From positions 1-15,547 of the forward strand of contig CAMUZC010000034.1 in NCBI GenBank assembly GCA_947165105.1: DNA of 15,547 bases. Direction: 5' to 3'. Of this stretch, positions 2,160 to 12,083 are shown one piece after another (the stretch's first letter is position 1; every line of letters starts with the position of its first letter). Both the position numbers and the translations under genes were made by a program. Source of the stretch: an uncultured Lachnospiraceae bacterium. Its GTDB lineage: Bacteria > Bacillota_A > Clostridia > TANB77 > CAG-508. Below the pieces are notes generated by a model. It saw nothing but the letters and a program-made list of their open reading frames with translations, was not told the origin of the DNA and made no database searches.

Positions 2160-2358
2160 AATTACAAATAATCCCTGCGTAGTGCGTGTAGATTGGAATT
2201 TTAGAACCAACAAACGATAAACGGGAGTCCGCCTTTGGATGTGGCGTGTAGGCTTGCATTTATGTAAGAAACCCAGGAGCATTCAACAAGACACCCACCT
2301 GTGAAAGCAGGTCCTTAAAATTTCACTTGGACTTACGGCTAATGTGGGGCTTTTTTTT
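2160..2358 (+). ncRNA. ssrS: 6S RNA (RNA polymerase regulator)
   Basis: No gene is encoded in the 346 bases between ung and prmC. The rightward strand instead carries a structured RNA. CCCTGCGT (2173-2180) can pair with ATGTGGGG (2342-2349) over 8 bp with G-U pairs, closing the molecule. Internal hairpins include CTTGCA/TGTAAG with a 4-base loop and ACCTG/CAGGT with a 6-base loop. The GACACCCACCTG...CAGGTCC block resembles the conserved GACACatTCACCTTG...CAAGGG part of E. coli 6S RNA, and the long closed rod with a central bubble fits that family. Eight T follow the closing stem at 2351-2358. 6S RNA mimics an open promoter and binds the housekeeping RNA polymerase holoenzyme in stationary phase. 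The 5' end is inferred from the promoter and may lie near 2149. The call is from memory of the family, not from a covariance-model search. tmRNA, SRP RNA and RNase P RNA do not fit. Confidence 0.8.
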
Positions 2359-4065: not shown

Positions 4066-4112
4066 AACACTCATCCCATTTTTATAAATACTTAACTTAC
4101 CTCCGTAGAGTA

Positions 4113-4271
4113 GTCCAAATGTCAAAAAAGGTCGACTAGCTAAATTTATTAATGCGCAGTGGAGTGCGCAGTTTGGCGCCCCCACCTACCGTCTTCATCG
4201 ACACTCCAACGCCAGCAAACGAACGGAGCATTAATAACATTTAGCTAATCGACTTTTTTCGACATTTGGAC
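4113..4271. repeat. Palindromic intra-operon repeat, copy A
   Basis: An imperfect palindrome of 159 bp. The outer arms (4113-4145 and 4239-4271) pair over 33 positions with three near-misses that become G-U pairs on one strand or the other. The inner arm TTATTAATGC/GCATTAATAA continues the stem after a one-base bulge. The GC-rich core contains TGCGCA-GTGGAG-TGCGCA, a 6-bp hairpin, then TTTGGCG...CGCCAGCAAA. It lies 14 bases past the stop of the GT8-PlsC gene and about 47 bases before the acyltransferase start. CCGTAGAGTA (4103-4112) precedes it, as in copy C. Confidence 0.9.
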
Positions 4272-4285
4272 GGCTCCCTAAAAAA

Positions 4286-6085
4286 CTAAACCGTTTCTTT
4301 ATCTTCAAGTATATCATACTCAAGTGGAACCCCATAAAAATCCTCATATATATCTTTCCAAACTTGATAATTCTTATCCCTCATCATAACAGTATTATCT
4401 TTCTCACTCAAATTACAATCAGGATAAATTGGCTTACCAATATTAACAATATACTCTTGAATAGGAAATCCATCTTCACCAATAATATCACTATCTTCCA
4501 TAGTAATAAAAATAGGAATAACCGGAACCTTACTTCTAGCAGCGAAATTAAAAGCACCATTTTTCAAAGGCTTTGGTTTTCTATAATTCCACCACATACT
4601 TTGTTCTGGATAAACTAATATAAAATCTCCTCTTTTTAAAATAACATCAACAGCTTTAATAAATTCCATCATTGTTCTTTTATTAGAACTTAATGGTAAC
4701 GTATCACAATTTCTAAAGAAGAAACCATATAACCCTGGAAAATTAGTATAATTTCCTTCTCTTATAACCTTAAATAATTTTTTATACTTATCTTGTCCTG
4801 CAATTCTAAATACTTTTTCAACTGTAAATGAATCATATGGATTAAAATGGTTACAGGTAATAATTGCACCTGATTTAACACTCTGTAAATTTTCAATTCC
4901 TCTTATTTCTTTAATTATCAATTTATTTTCTTTGATTAAATCATTAACTAATCTTTCAGCCATTTTAGTAGCCATTTTACTTTTTATTTGACTCATTTTA
5001 CTTGATTTTAAATAATCAATATCATCTGGTTCAAGTGGTATTGTTGGTGGATCATCTTCAACATCTACATCAAAAACTCCACTTTCTTCCAATTTTCTTA
5101 TTTTTTCTAAAACCTCTAATCTATCCTTAGATTTTTCAACAGTTTCTGTATTTTTTTTATTCAATCTATCATCTCCAACGCAATCAGCTTCATATTTTGC
5201 AAGTTCAACAAGCCTTTTTGCATTTTCAAAATCATCAAATTTTTGCTTTTCTGTATAATTTTTTTGCATTTTAATGATTTCATCATAAAATTCCGTTTTT
5301 TGTGCATATTTCCAGAAGAAATCTTGATATAGAACATTGTCATAATGCCATGGTTTATAATTTAAATTATAATGCACCAATTTTACATCATTTGCATCTA
5401 TTCCTAATTCAGGCATTGGCATTGCATTCCATACATTATCTACGATTTTTACTCTACCTTTACACAATCTATTTAAGTAGTCCTGATCTTGTGCTACAGT
5501 GAATTTCATATTTTCTAATAAATATAAAAATTTTTCTTGAAACTTGAATCTTCTTAGTTCACTTAAGTTCATAAGTAAAATTCCAGCATTGAAATAGTTA
5601 TTGTAATCTCTTACTCCTACAACTTTTTCAACATATTCTTTAAATATATCTACGGTTTGAACTGCTCCATCTGGAACACCTGCTACTAAATTACTTCCCA
5701 TATCTATATTATATAATTCAGCTATATCACCCATAATTGTTATATCACTGTCGAGATATAATGCTTTTGAATATTGAGGATATAAATCAGGCACAAACAA
5801 TCTAAAGTATGTTGTTTTTGTATAATAATCCCTAGTGTATAATTTGTCTTTTACTCTCTCTATATAATAATTTAAATCTACAAATTCTATATTAACATTC
5901 TCTCTTTGATATTTATTTATTTTTCTTTTGTTTTCTTCACTTACATTTGTATGTAAAACTTTAACTGAATAGTAATAATTCTTTGATGAATTATCTATTA
6001 ATGATTCCAATGTTACTGCTAAAAATGGTATATATCCATCATCTACTGCAAAAAATATTGGTATTACTTCTAAATTATTTTCCAT
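4286..6085 (-). CDS. GT8 glycosyltransferase fused to a PlsC-like acyltransferase
   Basis: A 599-residue two-domain protein. Residues 5-270 form a GT-A glycosyltransferase of family 8: an IPIFFAVDDGYIPFLAVTLESL N-terminus, the metal-binding DSD at 112-114 in ALYLDSDI, the YFNAGILLMNL block, AQDQDYLN (198-205) and a late metal-ligand motif H238...KPW. Residues 275-345 are a charged helical linker. Residues 385-590 form an acyltransferase with canonical NHFNPYDS (HX4D, His413/Asp418), the TLPLSSNKRTM block and YPEQSMWW (492-499). No signal peptide or clear membrane segment is seen. The start follows GAGGGAG at good spacing and lies 12 bases after the preceding GT8 gene. A sugar transfer and an acylation on the same acceptor are inferred, for example on a glycolipid or lipoglycan. 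The acceptor is not known. Confidence 0.88.
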   Translation of the reverse strand: MENNLEVIPIFFAVDDGYIPFLAVTLESLIDNSSKNYYYSVKVLHTNVSEENKRKINKYQRENVNIEFVDLNYYIERVKDKLYTRDYYTKTTYFRLFVPDLYPQYSKALYLDSDITIMGDIAELYNIDMGSNLVAGVPDGAVQTVDIFKEYVEKVVGVRDYNNYFNAGILLMNLSELRRFKFQEKFLYLLENMKFTVAQDQDYLNRLCKGRVKIVDNVWNAMPMPELGIDANDVKLVHYNLNYKPWHYDNVLYQDFFWKYAQKTEFYDEIIKMQKNYTEKQKFDDFENAKRLVELAKYEADCVGDDRLNKKNTETVEKSKDRLEVLEKIRKLEESGVFDVDVEDDPPTIPLEPDDIDYLKSSKMSQIKSKMATKMAERLVNDLIKENKLIIKEIRGIENLQSVKSGAIITCNHFNPYDSFTVEKVFRIAGQDKYKKLFKVIREGNYTNFPGLYGFFFRNCDTLPLSSNKRTMMEFIKAVDVILKRGDFILVYPEQSMWWNYRKPKPLKNGAFNFAARSKVPVIPIFITMEDSDIIGEDGFPIQEYIVNIGKPIYPDCNLSEKDNTVMMRDKNYQVWKDIYEDFYGVPLEYDILEDKETV

Positions 6086-6097
6086 TTTTACTCCCTC

Positions 6098-6928
6098 TCA
6101 TTTGTTTACTTTCATAAATTCTTCTTTTACTTTCAAATATTCATTTAAATCATCATCAAACGCATAACATTTTAAAACTTTATGTACTTCATTTATATGC
6201 CATTGTTTAAAATTTTCTGTATGAGGATATGGTAAAAACATTAATCTTTTACAGAAATGACATACTACTGTATCTTTTCTATTGAATTTTGATTGTTCAT
6301 TAAATCTACGTGGCAATAATAATTTTTTTGTTGTTGACCAAAAAATTGCATCTTGATCAGCAAAAAGCATTTTCTTATTTTTTATTCTTTCTCTTGCTTT
6401 AGCAAGTAAACATGTTTCTGCAATTTTATTCATATTCAATAATAACATTCCTGCATTAATATAATCAGGTCTTATAAGCCAACATCCATATTTTTCCTTA
6501 ACAGCTGCATATTCGTAATCTGTAACATCAATATTATATAATTTTGAAATGTCATCACCTATCATCATATCGATGTCTAAATATAATAATTTTTCTGGCA
6601 TATCTGGTACTAAATCTGCTAATAAACGTAATAAAGTATATGGTGTGCAATATGCATTTTCATTTTTACAATTTGCAAATTCTTTCTCATATATATCAGT
6701 TACATCAACTTTTATTACTCTATTATTTTCATTTTTTGATTTGACCACATGGTCTAAAAAGTCAACCTGTTCATCTGTTATTGAAACAAAATCTGGATTG
6801 AGTCTTGAAACATCCATTGTAAATATATAACATGTTATATCCTCTTTTGTTCTATTAGTCATTGATATTAGCTGTGTTAAAGCTCCATCAAAGACTTTTT
6901 TATTTCCACATAAAAGTATATTTACCAT
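6098..6928 (-). CDS. GT8 family glycosyltransferase
   Basis: This 276-residue protein is a stand-alone GT-A glycosyltransferase of family 8, using a nucleotide sugar and a divalent metal. It begins MVNILLCGNKKVFDGALTQL, carries the DID metal motif at 118-120 in LLYLDIDMMIG, INAGMLLLNMN around 157-167 and ADQDAIFW around 190-197. A later HFCKR...PH region may supply the distal metal ligand. The frame extends to an upstream ATG at 6955, but the promoter predicts transcription from about 6953, and AGAGGAG precedes ATG 6928, so 6928 is the start. It is the first gene of a leftward operon with the GT8-PlsC fusion and the lone acyltransferase. Acceptor unknown. It may add a sugar before or after the fusion protein acts. 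Confidence 0.87.
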   Translation of the reverse strand: MVNILLCGNKKVFDGALTQLISMTNRTKEDITCYIFTMDVSRLNPDFVSITDEQVDFLDHVVKSKNENNRVIKVDVTDIYEKEFANCKNENAYCTPYTLLRLLADLVPDMPEKLLYLDIDMMIGDDISKLYNIDVTDYEYAAVKEKYGCWLIRPDYINAGMLLLNMNKIAETCLLAKARERIKNKKMLFADQDAIFWSTTKKLLLPRRFNEQSKFNRKDTVVCHFCKRLMFLPYPHTENFKQWHINEVHKVLKCYAFDDDLNEYLKVKEEFMKVNK

Positions 6929-6959
6929 CTTTTCTCCTCTTTTTTTATAATTCATTGTT

Positions 6960-6988
6960 ATTATATACTATATTACTTTTTTTTGCAA
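6960..6988 (-). promoter_or_regulatory. Promoter of the glycosyltransferase/acyltransferase operon
   Basis: On the minus strand TTGCAA (6983-6988), a 17-base A-rich spacer and TATAAT (6960-6965) form a near-consensus promoter. It gives a leader of about 25 bases and excludes the longer upstream start of the first gene. Confidence 0.78.
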
Positions 6989-7053
6989 ATTAATATTCTA
7001 TTTTTAAGTACAATTCAAAAACTTTGAGAATTTCTTTTAAAAATATAATTATA

Positions 7054-7091
7054 TAAAAAAACTGCCAGGAAATAAACATATCCTGACAGTT
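7054..7091 (-). terminator. Intrinsic terminator of the kinase-like gene
   Basis: On the minus strand AACTGTCAGGA (7081-7091) pairs with TCCTGGCAGTT (7060-7070), an 11-bp stem with one U-G pair, followed by seven T (7054-7060). It begins 6 bases past the stop of the gene ending at 7098. Confidence 0.88.
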
Positions 7092-7097
7092 AAATTA

Positions 7098-7685
7098 TTA
7101 CAATGTAATAATTTTGTTGAATACAATATCTGCTACCTCGCTTTTACTGAGATTTGTAGTATCTAAATAGAGTTTTGATTCAATACACTCAGCAAATTCA
7201 TCAAATTTTCTTTTGTAGTTAGTTAGAAAATCTTTTTTTGTGAAAGTTACTGGCTCTCCTGAAGCAATTCTTCTTTTGATTGATTCCTCAACGTCTACGT
7301 CGATTATATACAACAAATCTGGAAAAACATTATACTTCTTACCAAACGTTTCCATAAACTCAGTTATATACTTAGAATACTCTGAATCTTTATCATTGTA
7401 CATATTAGCCCAAAAAAGCTGATTATAAAAGCCTCTGTCAAGTAAAATGTAATCTGCATTTGACGTATACTTTATTTCTAAGCTTTTCTGCAATGTTTCC
7501 AATGTGATCCAAAGGTTCTGTTCTATTGAGCCTTTTGGAATTGTCGTAGGAAGAAGTTCCGCGGGTTCCTGCATAATTATTGCGTTAACATCATTGTCTT
7601 TGCACATCTTGTCAATGTTTTTTAACAATGTTGTTTTTCCAGAATTGGGTAATCCTGAAAATTCAACAATTATAGGCCGTTTCAT
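7098..7685 (-). CDS. P-loop kinase-like protein (deoxynucleoside or thymidylate kinase fold)
   Basis: The 195-residue P-loop NTPase begins MKRPIIVEFSGLPNSGKTT with Walker A at 11-18. It then shows MQEPAEL (38-44), like the acidic-Pro motif of nucleoside/nucleotide kinases, LLDRGFYNQLFW (DRG at 83-85, the Asp-Arg motif typical of dNK/TMK folds), and an arginine-rich lid-like segment IKRRIASGEP. These fit a phosphotransferase acting on a nucleoside, nucleotide or small molecule, with no membrane part. AGGAGGCG precedes the ATG at good spacing. It has its own promoter and terminator and no functional link to its neighbours. Close relatives are often annotated only as AAA-family ATP-binding proteins, so the substrate is not assigned. 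Confidence 0.7.
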   Translation of the reverse strand: MKRPIIVEFSGLPNSGKTTLLKNIDKMCKDNDVNAIIMQEPAELLPTTIPKGSIEQNLWITLETLQKSLEIKYTSNADYILLDRGFYNQLFWANMYNDKDSEYSKYITEFMETFGKKYNVFPDLLYIIDVDVEESIKRRIASGEPVTFTKKDFLTNYKRKFDEFAECIESKLYLDTTNLSKSEVADIVFNKIITL

Positions 7686-7718
7686 GAAAACGCCTCCTTT
7701 AAATAATTTTATACTGTG

Positions 7719-7747
7719 AATATATCATATGAATTTTTTTAAGTCTA
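7719..7747 (-). promoter_or_regulatory. Promoter of the kinase-like gene
   Basis: On the minus strand TAGACT (7742-7747), a 17-base spacer and TATATT (7719-7724) make a plausible sigma-A-type promoter 34 bases before the ATG at 7685. Confidence 0.55.
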
Positions 7748-7766
7748 TACTTTTATCGAAATTTGT

Positions 7767-7799
7767 CGAAAAAAGTAAGGGTGAATTATCACCCTTACT
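7767..7799 (-). terminator. Intrinsic terminator of the M41 protease gene
   Basis: AGTAAGGGTGA (7774-7784) pairs perfectly with TCACCCTTACT (7789-7799), an 11-bp stem with a 4-base loop. A T-run follows it on the minus strand. The stop codon (7795-7797) lies inside the stem. Confidence 0.88.
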
Positions 7800-9186
7800 C
7801 TTCATTTTTTTTACTTTGCGAATACTTTTCCCACATATCATAAACTTTGTGCTTAGATAACACTAATTCTTTGAATAATTCTTCAGACAAACTTTTAACA
7901 AATTCCTGATGTTCAAAAATCTGATTTTCTGCATATTTTTCTGATTTTTTTAAGATTTCTCTCTTTTCGTCTTCCAACTGCATTTTTGTTTTTTCAGAAA
8001 TATACTTTTCATCATCTAATATTACATAGTTTTTGCCAATGCTTTCTGAAAAACCATATCTTGTAACCATGTCATTTATCTTTTGCATAGCAGCCTTCAA
8101 ATCAGAAGAGGCACCTGTATTAGATTTAACATTTGGATTCAGTTTTTGTTCCGCAATTCTTCCAGCTAAGCACTCTGAAACTTCTTTAATAAGTAAATCC
8201 TGATTTTTATAATAACTTGCAATCCTTTTCGAACCTTCAAAACTTGTAACACCATTATTGCTTCTTCCAGGAATAATGGATACATATCGAATATCCGAAA
8301 GACTAGAATTTATTAATCTTATTAAAGTATGCCCAGCCTCATGAATTGCAGTATTTTTTAAAGCTTCTTCCGAAGTGTCATCTAAATACTTGAATGAATC
8401 TGGATAAATTAGTTTTGCAATATCCTTTTCTAATTTAGTTTTTTCGCTCTTTTTAGATAGTAAAAATGCATACTCTATAACATTAAGATACGAATTGATA
8501 TTATAACAATTTTCAGTCCAACCAGATTCTATTGCAATAAAAAACAGCAACATATCCCTAGTGTAACTAACATCATATTTTTTTGATAGCTCATCCACTC
8601 TGGGAGCCATCATATCAATTAATAAATCAATGTCTCTTTTTTGTACACAATCAACTACTATGTAAGAGCTTTTTAACTTCTTTTGAAGAATTTCCAAATC
8701 ATTTGGACTTGCCACAGAAAGTTCAAAAATAATTTTAAGGAACTTAATATCGTAATATTTTTTAATTTCATCTAAATATAAATCCATTACATTTAGAGCC
8801 TTATTTATCATTTCCAAGCTTTCAAATTCTGCATACAAAATCAGTGATGCTGAATTATATTCATTGATAAGATTTGAAATTATTTCAAGCATTTTATCAA
8901 CATCTAAATTTACAATTGTCCATATTGGCTTAATATAAACAACTTTCATTGATTCAACGCCTAATAACTTATTCAAATCTTGCTGGATAAAATTCCGCAT
9001 TAATGCAGTTTTTCCACAGCCTTTAGGACCTGCTATTATTACACCATTTTTAGAATCACATTGCAAAATATCGTTTATCAGTTGTAATTCTTCAACAGCA
9101 TAATACTTTTTTCCATCATCCTTCAGCTCTGCATATGGCTTCATAAGATTCTTCCAAAAAAGTTTTTTGTCTTCTGTCTCATTCAT
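7795..9186 (-). CDS. Soluble FtsH-like M41 metalloprotease with degenerate AAA domain
   Basis: A 463-residue protein. The N-terminal half looks like an AAA+ module: Walker A GPKGCGKT at 53-60, a Walker-B-like strand ASLILYAEFE (113-122) with the usual Asp-Glu pair not conserved, and a helical lid region (about 180-255) reminiscent of the Clp AAA-1 lid. No arginine-finger or second-region-of-homology motif is evident. The C-terminal half is an M41 peptidase: zinc motif HEAGH (282-286), SIIPGR...GVTSF, LAGRIAEQ (340-347), NTGASSDLKAA with the likely third zinc ligand D362, and MVTRYGFS. Membrane segments, present in canonical FtsH, are absent. It probably degrades cytosolic proteins, or its ATPase part serves as a regulatory or binding module. 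AAGGAG lies 13 bases before the ATG. Monocistronic, with its own promoter and terminator. Confidence 0.83.
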   Translation of the reverse strand: MNETEDKKLFWKNLMKPYAELKDDGKKYYAVEELQLINDILQCDSKNGVIIAGPKGCGKTALMRNFIQQDLNKLLGVESMKVVYIKPIWTIVNLDVDKMLEIISNLINEYNSASLILYAEFESLEMINKALNVMDLYLDEIKKYYDIKFLKIIFELSVASPNDLEILQKKLKSSYIVVDCVQKRDIDLLIDMMAPRVDELSKKYDVSYTRDMLLFFIAIESGWTENCYNINSYLNVIEYAFLLSKKSEKTKLEKDIAKLIYPDSFKYLDDTSEEALKNTAIHEAGHTLIRLINSSLSDIRYVSIIPGRSNNGVTSFEGSKRIASYYKNQDLLIKEVSECLAGRIAEQKLNPNVKSNTGASSDLKAAMQKINDMVTRYGFSESIGKNYVILDDEKYISEKTKMQLEDEKREILKKSEKYAENQIFEHQEFVKSLSEELFKELVLSKHKVYDMWEKYSQSKKNEE

Positions 9187-9225
9187 CTATGAAAAACTCC
9201 TTTCATGATTATTAATATATATAAA

Positions 9226-9240
9226 CTGGTGCTTGACCAG
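9226..9240. other. Short hairpin in the leader of the protease gene
   Basis: CTGGT and ACCAG form a 5-bp stem with a 5-base loop, midway between the promoter (9261-9289) and the ribosome site of the protease gene. It may be an operator or a leader structure. It matches neither CIRCE nor a complete CtsR site. Confidence 0.35.
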
Positions 9241-9260
9241 AAATTTAGATTTACATAAAT

Positions 9261-9289
9261 ATATTATCACGTTTTTCCATATATTTCAA
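9261..9289 (-). promoter_or_regulatory. Promoter of the M41 protease gene
   Basis: On the minus strand TTGAAA (9284-9289), a 17-base spacer and TAATAT (9261-9266), with TG one base before the -10 box (extended -10). Predicted start near 9254 gives a leader of about 70 bases. The promoter lies just after truB, so the protease is separable from that operon. Confidence 0.7.
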
Positions 9290-9329
9290 GCAATTTGTGC
9301 ATTTTAGACATTCTTCGCTATACTTTTTT

Positions 9330-10208
9330 CTATTCTATTATTATTTTTCTCTTTAATTTTCCATCAACACATATTGCAATTCCTATAAATGAATGATTTT
9401 GATTGTAAATCTTTACAAGATCACCATTATAGTCTTCACCTATCATAACACCATTTAAAAATAAATTAAGTTGTTTTTCGTTTAGAATAACATTTTCTTT
9501 TTGTTTGAAAAAATCTTCTATGCTGATAAGCTTTTCATTTATAAAATCTGCATTTGTAAAATTATCTTTAAGTTCTTGAATTGTAATTGCATCATCAATT
9601 TTAAAATCTCCTACCATCGTTCTTTTCAATTCTTTCATATACCCAACAGTACCTAAAGATTCTGCAATTTTTTCGCATATAGATCTTACATACGTACCTT
9701 TTGAACAATATATTTCAAATGTAAGTAACTTTTCATCATTACTAATATCTAATAATTTCAAATCATAAATTTCAATTTCTCGCTCTGGAATATTCACAGA
9801 TTTTCCACTTCTTGCATACTCGTACAATTTTTTTCCATTTACTTTTATTGCAGAATACATTGGAGGAACCTGCCTCTGCTTACCAATCAATCTTTTTAAA
9901 ACTATTTCCACATTTCTATTGTCTAAGGCATCTTCATCAACCTCTTTTTCCTCAATAACATTTCCTTCAACATCAGCAGTATCAGTCTTAACCCCAAGTT
10001 TAAGAGTTGCCACATACTTTTTATCATGATTAATCAAAAATTGAGAAAGCTCAGTTCCTTTTCCAATAAGAACTGGAAGTACCCCAGTAGCATTAGGATC
10101 CAAAGTACCAGTATGTCCTACTTTTTTACCAAATAACTTCTTCACCTGATGAACAACATCATGAGAAGTGCACCCCTTCTCCTTATTCATAACCAAAATT
10201 CCATCCAT
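9330..10208 (-). CDS. truB: tRNA pseudouridine-55 synthase
   Basis: TruB converts U55 of the tRNA T-loop to pseudouridine. The 292-residue protein has the family motifs: GILVMNKEKGCTSHDVV at the N-terminus, GHTGTLDPNATGVLP with catalytic Asp37, KTDTAD, MYSAIKVNGKKLYEYAR and CSKGTYVRSI. Length is normal and the C-terminal part resembles a short PUA-like region. GAGGTG precedes the ATG. It is the last recognisable gene of the leftward nusA-infB cluster. It follows nrnA, with repeat copy B between them. ribF, often next in this cluster, is absent. No clear terminator was found after the stop at 9330. Confidence 0.97.
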   Translation of the reverse strand: MDGILVMNKEKGCTSHDVVHQVKKLFGKKVGHTGTLDPNATGVLPVLIGKGTELSQFLINHDKKYVATLKLGVKTDTADVEGNVIEEKEVDEDALDNRNVEIVLKRLIGKQRQVPPMYSAIKVNGKKLYEYARSGKSVNIPEREIEIYDLKLLDISNDEKLLTFEIYCSKGTYVRSICEKIAESLGTVGYMKELKRTMVGDFKIDDAITIQELKDNFTNADFINEKLISIEDFFKQKENVILNEKQLNLFLNGVMIGEDYNGDLVKIYNQNHSFIGIAICVDGKLKRKIIIE

Positions 10209-10292
10209 CTTCTAACACCTCACTTTATTTGAAATAAAATAATAAAAAACATATATATATTATTTTCCTAAAACACTATAAATAACAGAGTA

Positions 10293-10451
10293 GTCGAAAT
10301 GTCGAAAAAGGTCGATGAGCTAAATTTATTAATGCGCAGTGAGTGCGCAGTTTGGCGCTCCACACTTATGTCTTTCTTCCAAACTCCCACGCCAGTAAAC
10401 GAACGTAGCATTAATAACATTTAGCTCATCGACCTTTTTCGATATTTCGAC
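10293..10451. repeat. Palindromic intra-operon repeat, copy B
   Basis: A 159-bp imperfect palindrome related to copies A and C. The outer arms (10293-10325 and 10419-10451) pair over 33 positions with one G-U on the plus strand. The inner arm TTATTAATGC/GCATTAATAA is the same as in copy A. The core hairpin is TGCGCA-GTGAG-TGCGCA (loop one base shorter), then TTTGGCG...CGCCAGTAAA. GTCG...CGAC at the outer end replaces GTCC...GGAC of copy A, a paired change. It starts 18 bases past the nrnA stop and ends 84 bases before the truB ATG. Confidence 0.9.
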
Positions 10452-10469
10452 GGCCAATTCCAAAATGCT

Positions 10470-11429
10470 TTATTTCAAATAAGCCTTAACCTCATTCATA
10501 ATTTTATCTTTTACATGTTGTAAATCTCCCTGAATAGTGCATCCCGCAGCACGAGGATGACCTCCTCCACCAAATAGCAATGCAACATCAGAAACATTTA
10601 CATACTCATTAGAACGTAAAGAAACTTTCCATCCTTTACCATTCTTCAACTCTCTAATAAATGCAGAAACTTCAACACCTTCAATACATTTTCCAATATT
10701 AACAATACCTTCGTGATCACCAGTTTCACTATGTACTTTTTCTTCATCTTCAAGAGTTATATATGTAAATGTAGCCTTATTATCATAGAAAAATTCCAAT
10801 CTAGATTCAGCAATTCTTCTTAATTCAAAACTTGTTCTAGTAGTAGTTTCTAAAACTCTTCTATATATTTTTGAAACATTAACACCTTTATTTAATAATT
10901 CAGCTACAAATTCAAATGTTTCAACATTTGTACCTTGGTATTTAAACCCACCTGTATCTGTTATAATACCAGTTAAAATACATGTACCAATTTCCTTTGT
11001 AATTGCCATTTTAAAATACTCTAAAAGTACAATTAATATTTGAGCACAAGCTGGTGAGTCAGGGTTTACATAGTTAATATCACCATACATAGTATTTGTT
11101 CCATGATGATCAATAACTACGCTTGTTTTAGCTTCTTCAAAGTATTTTCCCCAACCATTAAGCATTTTTAATGTTGCAGCATCTACTGAAATTGCTAAAT
11201 CATATTGTTCAACACTACTCTCTTTTTTTATTTCAGCAGCTCCTGGTAAAAACTCAAAACATCTAGAGTACTCAGGAATAATAACATCTACATTTTGCTT
11301 TCCGTAATTTTTCAAAGCATTATACAATGCTAAACTACTTCCAATAGCATCACCATCAGGATTCTCGTGTGTTAATATTACTATTGAATCTGCATTATTT
11401 ATTTGTTCTATAATATTATCTAAAGTCAT
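10470..11429 (-). CDS. nrnA: Bifunctional oligoribonuclease/PAP phosphatase (DHH family)
   Basis: NrnA degrades short RNA oligomers (nanoRNA) and dephosphorylates pAp to AMP, in the cytosol with Mn2+. The 319-residue protein shows the DHH order: HENPDGDAIGSSLA (21-34, DGDA), SVDAA (81-85), VIDHHGTN (DHH at 107-109), a later LTGIITDTGGFK block, and the DHHA1 signature GGGGHPRAAG (287-296). AAGGAAG precedes ATG 11429. Placement between rbfA and truB is common in Firmicutes. It is transcribed with rbfA (67-base gap) and followed by repeat B. Confidence 0.95.
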   Translation of the reverse strand: MTLDNIIEQINNADSIVILTHENPDGDAIGSSLALYNALKNYGKQNVDVIIPEYSRCFEFLPGAAEIKKESSVEQYDLAISVDAATLKMLNGWGKYFEEAKTSVVIDHHGTNTMYGDINYVNPDSPACAQILIVLLEYFKMAITKEIGTCILTGIITDTGGFKYQGTNVETFEFVAELLNKGVNVSKIYRRVLETTTRTSFELRRIAESRLEFFYDNKATFTYITLEDEEKVHSETGDHEGIVNIGKCIEGVEVSAFIRELKNGKGWKVSLRSNEYVNVSDVALLFGGGGHPRAAGCTIQGDLQHVKDKIMNEVKAYLK

Positions 11430-11496
11430 TCCATAACTTCCTTATCTTTGTGAAAATTTAGGTTTTTTTGGTTTTACCTATAAACCCATTTAAAAT

Positions 11497-11841
11497 TTAT
11501 TTTAAATCTTTCAAAATATTATCAATTCTAGCACCATATTCCAAAGAATCATCTATTTCAAAAACTAACTCAGGAGTAATTCTTAAATTAACTTCTTTAG
11601 CTATTCTACTTCTAATAAATCCAGCAGATTCCTTCAAACCAGCCATAGTTTTATCAATGTCTTTAGAATTTAAGATACTAACATACACTTTTGCATATTT
11701 AAAATCAGGAGTAATCTTAACCTTAGTAACACTAAGCATCCCCGTAATATTAGGATTCTTTAATTCATACGCTAAAATGCTACTTAATTCCTTCCTCAAC
11801 TCCTCATTTATCCTATTCAAACGAGCCTCATTCTTAGCCAC
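11497..11841 (-). CDS. rbfA: Ribosome-binding factor A
   Basis: RbfA binds the 30S subunit and assists 16S rRNA maturation. The protein shows the KH-type RbfA pattern: RINEELRKELSSIL, LKNPNITGMLSVTKVKITPDFKYAKVYVS, and RITPELVFEIDDSLEYGARIDNIL at the C-terminus. I prefer GTG 11841 (AKNEARLNR, 114 residues): it follows AAAGGAG with 11 intervening bases, and residues before it are not family-like. A TTG at 11865 would give 122 residues but has no ribosome site. It lies after infB, with repeat C in between, and before nrnA. Confidence 0.93.
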   Translation of the reverse strand: MAKNEARLNRINEELRKELSSILAYELKNPNITGMLSVTKVKITPDFKYAKVYVSILNSKDIDKTMAGLKESAGFIRSRIAKEVNLRITPELVFEIDDSLEYGARIDNILKDLK

Positions 11842-11900
11842 GTCACTCTCATCTCCTTTACTCAAAAATAATTTTTTCTAAAACTCTAAACCGTAGAGTA

Positions 11901-12061
11901 ACCGAAAAATATCGAAAAATATCAACAAGCTAAATTTTTAACGCGCAGTGGAGTGCGCAGCTTGGCGCCCCCACCTAATGTCTTTATAGAAATCACAACG
12001 CCAGCAAACGAACGGAGCGTTAAAACATTTAGCTTGTTGGTGTTTTTCGTTATTTTTCGGT
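11901..12061. repeat. Palindromic intra-operon repeat, copy C
   Basis: A 161-bp imperfect palindrome, the most divergent copy. Outer arms (11901-11935 and 12027-12061) differ strongly from A and B in sequence but still pair, with two U-G pairs and one mismatch. The inner arm TTTTAACGC/GCGTTAAAA replaces the TTATTAATGC/GCATTAATAA of A and B, a paired change. The core is conserved: GCGCA-GTGGAG-TGCGC, TTGGCGCC, CGCCAGCAAACGAACGGAGC. It starts 22 bases past the infB stop and ends about 59 bases before rbfA. CCGTAGAGTA (11891-11900) precedes it as in copy A. Confidence 0.88.
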
Positions 12062-12083
12062 GGTCCACTGCAAGTCGAAAAAA

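What the first reader, a model, noticed from the sequence alone, without database searches (positions are those of the whole stretch)
4113..12061. A family of three structured palindromic repeats with pairing-preserving changes
Copies at 4113-4271, 10293-10451 and 11901-12061 share a GC-rich core but differ in the AT-rich arms. The differences keep pairing: outermost GTCC/GGAC (A), GTCG/CGAC (B), ACCG/CGGT (C); inner AATGC/GCATT (A, B) against AACGC/GCGTT (C). This suggests selection for a folded RNA or DNA form. I do not recognise the family. It recalls ERIC or BOX elements in size and palindromy but not in sequence.
Basis: seen in the sequence. Interest (0 to 1): 0.82.

Follow-up and report, generated by a model that had tools for sequence, protein, structure and literature searches.

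The report
Mobile hairpins with self-matching arms
Three 160-base palindromes between genes belong to a family of small mobile hairpins in one group of Clostridia: their matching arm changes look like a DNA-copying artefact rather than RNA selection, but the hairpin cap keeps a conserved strand-specific fold whose job is unknown.

Summary
The three copies are real members of a dispersed repeat family (29 places in one relative; 8 of 16 genus genomes by blastn). Intact copies are MITE-like: about 161 or 225-230 bp, GTTAC terminal repeats, 8-bp target duplications, empty sites in relatives. Two layers must be kept apart. 15 of the 24 are transversions, and their rate equals that of the core. Arms also convert and extend into host flank. 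This fits template switching, not RNA selection. (2) CAP: GCGCAGTTTGG / CAGYAA beside a covarying short helix with tandem G.A pairs (92 G.A against 2 C.T cells) persists where arms and inner hairpins are unrelated. One strand must fold; I favour ssDNA over RNA, weakly, from orientation. No Rfam match over a cap and no transposase found. 22 of 195 family genomes match; of 391 class genomes only two known carriers do. New variant of a known kind.

The parts
4108..4276 (+). Copy A of the hairpin element, between an acyltransferase gene and the stop codon (4286) of a GT8-acyltransferase fusion gene, both on the - strand
   Evidence: not present in any of the 8 relatives in which both flanks were found
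10288..10456 (+). Copy B, between truB and an nrnA-like gene (both - strand)
   Evidence: of 15 relatives, G001 (L161) holds a short-form and G004 (L160) a long-form element at this site
11896..12066 (+). Copy C, between rbfA and infB (both - strand)
   Evidence: 14 of 15 orthologous sites lack it, G001 keeps a remnant
4113..4155 (+). Copy A left arm (P1, 5' side), pairs with about 4229-4271
   Evidence: 42 aligned positions, 3 mismatches
4229..4271 (+). Copy A right arm (P1, 3' side)
4159..4176 (+). Copy A cap strand 1: P2 side GTGGAGT (4159-4165), then loop strand GCGCAGTTTGG (4166-4176)
   Evidence: sequence; motif scan
4177..4212 (+). Copy A variable inner region (P3), 36 nt
   Evidence: 16 to 91 nt in the other copies listed there; the 106 printed for L223 spans two tandem units
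4213..4224 (+). Copy A cap strand 2: CAGCAA (4213-4218), then P2 side ACGAAC (4219-4224)
   Evidence: sequence
10339..10355 (+). Copy B cap strand 1: GTGAGT (P2 with tandem G.A) + GCGCAGTTTGG
   Evidence: sequence
10393..10404 (+). Copy B cap strand 2: CAGTAA + ACGAAC
   Evidence: sequence
11948..11965 (+). Copy C cap strand 1: GTGGAGT + GCGCAGCTTGG
   Evidence: sequence
12002..12013 (+). Copy C cap strand 2: CAGCAA + ACGAAC
   Evidence: sequence

Best explanation
A family of non-autonomous, MITE-like mobile hairpins. Intact copies are moved in trans by an unseen transposase that acts on GTTAC terminal inverted repeats and leaves 8-bp duplications (shown: repeats, duplications, empty sites; inferred: the enzyme). 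During replication the long palindrome folds and nascent strands switch template between the arms; this rewrites one arm from the other, keeps the arms matched whatever their sequence, and now and then extends them into neighbouring DNA (shown as a pattern at orthologous sites; the enzymology is inferred from established quasipalindrome work). The cap, an asymmetric loop GCGCAGTTTGG/CAGYAA on a short helix with tandem G.A pairs, is the part conserved across the family. It is most likely read as a single-stranded DNA hairpin by a protein of the element's life cycle (inferred; RNA is not excluded). The covariation of the arms is thus not a sign of RNA function.
For: Mobility: 8-bp duplications exact in 9 of 16 (13 of 16 at 7/8 or better) elements with one repeat type and in 12 of 14 with the other; shuffled partners give a mean below 1 and at most 5 at 7/8; sites without the element in relatives; 14 G012 copies with one and the same blastn score. 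Arms: 9 orthologous pairs, 386 arm pairs: 24 both-side and 8 single changes where 0.68 matched double changes are expected by chance; 6.2% per pair against 7.2% in the core (p 0.61); in the six closest pairs 12 of 258 against 58 of 1033 in flanks (p 0.65); 15 of 24 transversions, not different from flanks and core (p 0.39). 14 fetched G014 copies: 23 both-side cells, 3 single; 3.9% against 4.8% in the core. L009 has 22 nt more than its ortholog L039 on the right, a reverse copy of its own left flank; L061 has its right end replaced by the exact complement of the left. G-T 42 and A-C 39 mismatches in arms: no wobble bias. Cap: 57 distinct sequences, covariation 0.377 against 0.162 shuffled (0 of 500 as high) and at most 0.166 slid; 92 G.A against 2 C.T cells; tandem G.A in seven sequence contexts. 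Orientation: 42 antisense to both neighbours against 9 sense in genus-type copies, 17 against 16 elsewhere.
Against: No transposase or autonomous partner was found. Many copies, the window's included, have no clear terminal repeats. Nothing shows that the cap works as ssDNA rather than RNA; there are no expression data. Over all nine pairs the paired rate (6.2%) is below the flanks (10.7%, p 0.007), and so is the core (7.2%, p 0.0097), so some local constraint, or flank misalignment, is possible. With the three pairs that I left out, one search counts 27 paired and 34 single changes (23 of the singles in L023/L037, whose arms match over about 20 nt only). The short cap helix forms standard pairs in only 56.8% of cells.
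Confidence: 0.55

Rival explanations
1. A structured RNA family: the + strand is transcribed, the cap binds a protein or ligand or is catalytic, and the arms are kept paired by selection on the RNA; copies spread as RNA-bearing repeats.
For: Strand-specific G.A pairs and a covarying P2 helix; a conserved internal loop with variable stems, the usual signature of a structured RNA; core and arms change somewhat less than flanks over all nine pairs.
Against: Both-side arm changes are mostly transversions, as fast as core changes, with few intermediates and no wobble bias. Genus-type copies lie mostly antisense to both neighbours, others at random. Arms share no sequence across branches that could be a promoter (I did not scan for promoters). 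No Rfam match over a cap.
Confidence: 0.27
2. An ordinary MITE family whose core is conserved only because copies are recent; nothing in it is selected to fold.
For: Terminal repeats, 8-bp duplications, high copy number; cores of orthologous copies drift.
Against: The cap survives between copies whose arms, ends and inner hairpins are unrelated, in 22 of 195 family genomes, and its helix covaries with strand-specific G.A pairs.
Confidence: 0.12
3. Both-arm changes come from recombination or gene conversion with other copies elsewhere in the genome, not from arm-to-arm copying.
For: Dozens of similar copies per genome; hybrid elements with one arm of each type exist (L059_3627 and L126). For several paired changes both variants occur in other copies.
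Against: At L075/L100 one variant of each change occurs in no other fetched copy, and at L118/L121 neither variant of any of the three changes does (only fetched copies were compared). L009's longer right arm copies its own flank.
Confidence: 0.12
4. REP-like elements moved by a RAYT (Y1 tyrosine transposase) that cuts next to GTAG at a single-stranded hairpin.
For: Many genus-type copies begin GTAGAGTAGTC; Y1_Tnp genes with open frames of 241-331 codons in 10 of 16 genus genomes; REP recognition is single-stranded (passages of PMC3733652).
Against: Of 16 Y1_Tnp loci none has a convincing cap within about 1.5 kb; the nearest thing is one string with two mismatches in L322. Three copy-rich genomes (G012, G014, G016) have no Y1_Tnp hit. 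Fixed 8-bp duplications are not a RAYT feature (recalled). The GTAG start is missing in other branches.
Confidence: 0.06

Closest known systems
Bacterial MITEs with strong hairpins (bcr1 of Bacillus cereus, RUP, NEMIS, ERIC, QMITEs)
   Same: 70-300 bp, no coding capacity, terminal inverted repeats, target duplications, stable fold (passages of PMC3733652 and PMC10969869).
   Different: No blastn match in E. coli genomes, plasmids or phages; bcr1, RUP, NEMIS and QMITE sequences were not compared. Here arms differ wholly from copy to copy while a small internal-loop cap is conserved, and several arm types carry the same cap.
REP/RAYT elements (GTAG- and CGTC-tagged palindromes)
   Same: Palindromes, often just downstream of genes, possibly recognised as single strands.
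   Different: Several times longer than the 20-40 bp given in the abstract of PMC3733652, with 8-bp duplications, no consistent GTAG tag and no RAYT gene seen beside copies.
Quasipalindrome correction / template-switch mutation (PMC8794818; PMC8604942)
   Same: One-step arm homogenisation that gives compensatory changes without selection (abstract and passages of the first; abstract of the second).
   Different: Those studies use RNA genes and yeast coding DNA; PMC8794818 calls its strongest evidence for maintenance of short stems circumstantial. Here dispersed copies with flanks as a neutral control allow a direct count.
Integron attC sites (recalled, no call)
   Same: Works-like only: sequence-variable hairpins with conserved unpaired features, read on one strand as ssDNA.
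   Different: Different conserved bases; fixed target duplications; I did not search for an integrase.

Membership tests
MITE (non-autonomous IS-type element) | Terminal inverted repeats | tested here: met
   GTTACWGTTTAAYA or GTTACARTTCAGGTGCC ends on both sides in 16 and 14 of the 121 core hits; degraded or absent in the window copies and in many others
MITE (non-autonomous IS-type element) | Target-site duplication of fixed length | tested here: met
   8 bp, exact in 9 of 16 and 12 of 14
MITE (non-autonomous IS-type element) | Multiple copies and sites without the element in relatives | tested here: met
MITE (non-autonomous IS-type element) | Related autonomous element with a transposase | tested here: inconclusive
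   terminal-repeat searches and 40 fetched regions showed no pair of ends round a gene; the ORFs there were not scanned for transposase domains, and draft assemblies break at repeats
REP / RAYT | GTAG tag at one end | tested here: not met
   seen in many genus-type copies, not in other branches
REP / RAYT | Y1 transposase gene flanked by the repeat | tested here: not met
   16 Y1_Tnp loci, no convincing cap within about 1.5 kb
ERIC | Sequence similarity to enterobacterial copies | tested here: not met
   copy A: no blastn match at E<=0.01 in 20,395 E. coli records
BOX (pneumococcus) | boxA/boxB/boxC sequence | not tested
   no pneumococcal genome collection was searched
Described structured RNA (Rfam 15) | Match to a covariance model | tested here: not met
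   window and ten loci at E<=1: no match over a cap; two below-threshold microRNA matches to the long inner hairpin of L135 and a group II intron inserted in L126
Structured RNA, undescribed | Transcription of the folding strand | not testable with these tools
   no expression data
Structured RNA, undescribed | Covariation in the core helix | tested here: met
   shuffles do not keep relatedness, slid controls do; no phylogeny-aware test was run

The most novel reading that the evidence does not exclude
The cap is a portable self-palindromising module. Folded as single-stranded DNA, it makes a replicating strand fold back and copy whatever lies beside it, so that any adjacent sequence, including one end of an insertion sequence, becomes a perfect inverted repeat and hence a mobilisable MITE. 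This would explain one cap under many unrelated near-perfect arms and ends (GTTAC types, GGGACACCTCC in G002, unique arms of about 40-100 bp in G004).
Probability: 0.15. Interest if true: 0.85.

Novelty: new variant of a known kind. Interest (0 to 1): 0.6.

Why it matters
Covariation in stems is treated as the best evidence for functional RNA. Here dispersed hairpins with alignable flanks let one count how often arms change together without selection: as fast as the core, with transversions as common as elsewhere. This makes the disputed role of template switching in keeping stems paired directly measurable, and warns RNA-motif pipelines about long palindromes. The cap is a separate strand-specific motif, spread through one bacterial family, for which I found no description, with an unknown partner.

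Tried and rejected
Counting in the window's own genome was not possible, so relatives were used. Plasmids and phages gave no blastn match; one viral contig matched the pattern by chance (L004) and two longer patterns matched none. Of three genome-contig hits to the pattern only L001 was real; L002 and L003 are chance matches inside unrelated sequence. Searches for a transposon with a gene between GTTAC ends failed. A broader covariance model (R2) came out without base pairs, because trimmed arms of unequal register blur the alignment, and was not used. Order-level blastn with one G001 copy over 287 genomes gave, outside four known carriers, only matches of 23-33 bases at E 7e-5 or weaker in 12 genomes, taken as chance. 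Group II introns were considered (one is inserted in a copy, L126; the family is no intron), as were integron attC (recalled) and REP/RAYT. I first took the arms as possible RNA evidence and dropped this.
Full report
WHAT IS THERE. The window has three palindromic copies in the same orientation between genes of the - strand. Rfam gives no match there at E<=1; its only hit in the window is 6S RNA. NCBIfam names the genes round B and C as infB, rbfA and truB, with nrnA below its cut-off.

A FAMILY. A 21-base pattern from the core found one true relative in the genome contigs, L001, a MAG contig labelled Lachnospiraceae, with the element in the same truB-nrnA gap as copy B. Its genome (G001) has 29 distinct places by blastn, some of them fragments (32 matches, 3 of them the reverse strand of a listed copy). 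With copy A as query 8 of 16 genomes of the genus have matches, up to 39 in one. Iterated nhmmer found 121 cores in the loci fetched by then. These are fetched regions, not an unbiased census.

MOBILITY. Intact copies in G001, G012 and G014 run out to terminal repeats GTTACWGTTTAAYA...TRTTAAACWGTAAC (mostly 224-230 bp); G012 also has a type of 161-163 bp ending GTTACARTTCAGGTGCC, 15 copies, and 14 G012 cores share one blastn score. With at most two (first type) or one (second type) mismatches allowed in each end, 16 and 14 elements qualify; their flanking 8-mers match exactly in 9 and 12; shuffled partners give a mean below one, at most 5, at 7/8 or better. At the infB-rbfA site 14 of 15 relatives lack the element and G001 keeps a right-hand remnant; at truB-nrnA 2 of 15 (G001, G004) have an element; at site A none of the 8 relatives with both flanks found has one, and three more showed one flank only. 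The window copies look like old, decayed insertions.

ARMS. In 114 copies the arms pair over 4,903 positions with 142 mismatches; 64 of 114 have no mismatch, although arm sequence differs from copy to copy. Mismatch types are G-T 42, A-C 39, other 61: no excess of wobble pairs on either strand. I compared the same insertion in two genomes. One search aligned 13 pairs; one search counted 12 (L065/L109 dropped, arms too different to align); one search counts 9, after I also left out L009/L039 (arms rearranged), L023/L037 (arms match over about 20 nt only) and L082/L083 (two places in one genome). In the 9, 386 arm pairs hold 24 changes made on both sides and 8 on one side; three of the 9 pairs have no change. 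By chance 0.68 matched double changes would be expected. With the left-out pairs the count is 27 paired and 34 single, 23 of the singles in L023/L037. Paired changes run at 6.2% per pair, like the core (48 of 668, 7.2%, p 0.61) but below the flanks (167 of 1562, 10.7%, p 0.007); in the six closest pairs they equal the flanks (12 of 258 against 58 of 1033, p 0.65). The core too is below the flanks (p 0.0097). 9 of 24 paired changes are transitions, against 83 of 167 in flanks and 21 of 48 in the core (p 0.39). In 14 fetched G014 copies against their consensus there are 23 both-side cells (18 distinct events, 8 of them transitions; nine cells in L096 alone) and 3 single ones: 3.9% against 4.8% in the core.

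WHY THIS IS NOT RNA SELECTION. Compensatory evolution through G-U intermediates should be slow, leave intermediates and favour transitions. Copying one arm from the other should give paired changes near the neutral rate, of any type, with few intermediates. The data fit the second. Two copies show larger steps: L061 has a 74-bp perfect palindrome, because its right end, asymmetric in the sister L062, is the exact complement of its left end; and L009 carries 22 nt on the right, absent from its ortholog L039, that repeat in reverse its own left flank. Template switching is known to do this: I saw the abstract and passages of PMC8794818, which calls its strongest evidence for maintenance of short stems circumstantial, and the abstract of PMC8604942. 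An older quasipalindrome-correction paper (van Noort and others, 2003) is recalled; one search shows only that papers hold those words. Exchange with other copies fits less well: at L075/L100 one variant of each change, and at L118/L121 both, occur in no other fetched copy; at other loci both variants do occur elsewhere.

THE CAP. A covariance model from 61 cores matched 22 of 195 genomes of the family at E<=0.001, some by one weak hit. Of 18 remote places that I read, 14 keep GCGCAGTTTGG (at most one change) on one side and CAGYAA on the other, with unrelated arms and inner hairpins; in the other four (L225, L228, L229, L230) strand 1 differs or is interrupted, while CAGCAA stays. A scan of fetched loci gave 141 distinct places, inner region 16 to 91 nt among those listed (it required the motif and matching arms). 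Outside the loop lies a 5-6 bp helix. In 57 distinct sequences its pairs covary: score 0.377 against 0.162 (sd 0.018) in shuffles, none of 500 as high, and at most 0.166 when slid; standard pairs fill 56.8% of cells. Of the 123 other cells 92 are G.A, 2 C.T and 9 A.C on the + strand (fixed register, so copies with an extra base, such as GTGGAGT, are partly misread). Tandem G.A occurs in seven contexts, such as GTGAC/GGAAC, GTGAT/AGAAC, GTGAG/CGAAC, GCGAC/GGAGC and ATGAC/GGAAT; other copies have full pairs (GTTTC/GAAAC, GTAAC/GTTAC, GTTCT/AGAAC). On the - strand the G.A cells would be C.T, so the + strand is the one that folds. Template switching would erase such mismatches, so this layer points to selection. 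Caveats: the sequences are related, and the scan asked for complementarity further than 3 nt from the loop.

RNA OR SSDNA. Of 77 genus-type places with both neighbours called, 42 lie antisense to both, 9 sense, 26 mixed; of 45 others 17, 16 and 12 (p 3.4e-6 for 42 against 9 and 1.0 for 17 against 16). Neighbours were called as ORFs of 100 codons or more, which misplaces some; the three window copies are not in these counts. Arms share no sequence across branches that could be a promoter, but I ran no promoter scan. This favours a DNA-level role, weakly. REP/RAYT was tested: Y1_Tnp genes in 10 of 16 genus genomes, no convincing cap near any of 16 loci.

SPREAD. R1 on 391 class genomes matched 2, G001 and G046, both already among the family's carriers (strict filters that lose weak matches). 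Plasmids, phages, E. coli and viral contigs gave no true copy. So it appears confined to one GTDB family, whose name the handles do not tell.

LITERATURE. Searches showed no description of this element; one search looked for the loop string itself and listed four papers on other subjects (titles and abstracts only). The library lacks most subscription papers. Nearest are MITEs and REPs (passages of PMC3733652, PMC2267715, PMC10969869).

UNSOLVED. The transposase; the origin of the long arms in G004 (L269: the orthologous site lacks the element in the relatives read, G014 and G015 having only 73 and 44 nt there; no other match to the arm stretch, which scored 24 candidates per genome; G001 keeps a short similar piece at the same site); and what reads the cap.

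Noticed in passing
window 2169-2354 (+): 6S RNA, Rfam RF00013, 100.5 bits.
   Followed up: no
window 7795-9186 (-): 463-codon gene with a Peptidase_M41 (FtsH-type) domain behind an ATPase_2-like stretch (just below Pfam's cut-off) instead of the usual FtsH AAA domain.
   Followed up: no
window 4286-6085 (-): Fusion of a GT8 glycosyltransferase with a PlsC-type acyltransferase; a separate acyltransferase gene follows.
   Followed up: no
L126 about 920-1525 (G012): A truncated group II intron (Rfam RF01999, RF00029) sits inside the cap of a hybrid copy with a type-1 left and a type-2 right arm.
   Followed up: partly
L223 about 250-500, - strand (G006): Three tandem copies of the cap hairpin, 91 bp apart, with a fully Watson-Crick P2 (GTAAC/GTTAC).
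   Followed up: partly
L198 298-372 (G012): 75-bp near-perfect palindrome with type-2 arms and no cap; the flanks printed read as an 8-bp duplication CAATTTTT: a cap-less mobile form.
   Followed up: partly
L160 (G004), truB-nrnA site: The site of copy B carries a long-form element in G004; whether it is the same insertion with a changed tip or a second insertion is open.
   Followed up: partly
L133 from about 1099 (G014): A different hairpin (GTTACTGTTTAACA end and GAGTAGCC flank, but no GCGCAGTTTGG cap) lies head-to-head with another repeat end.
   Followed up: no
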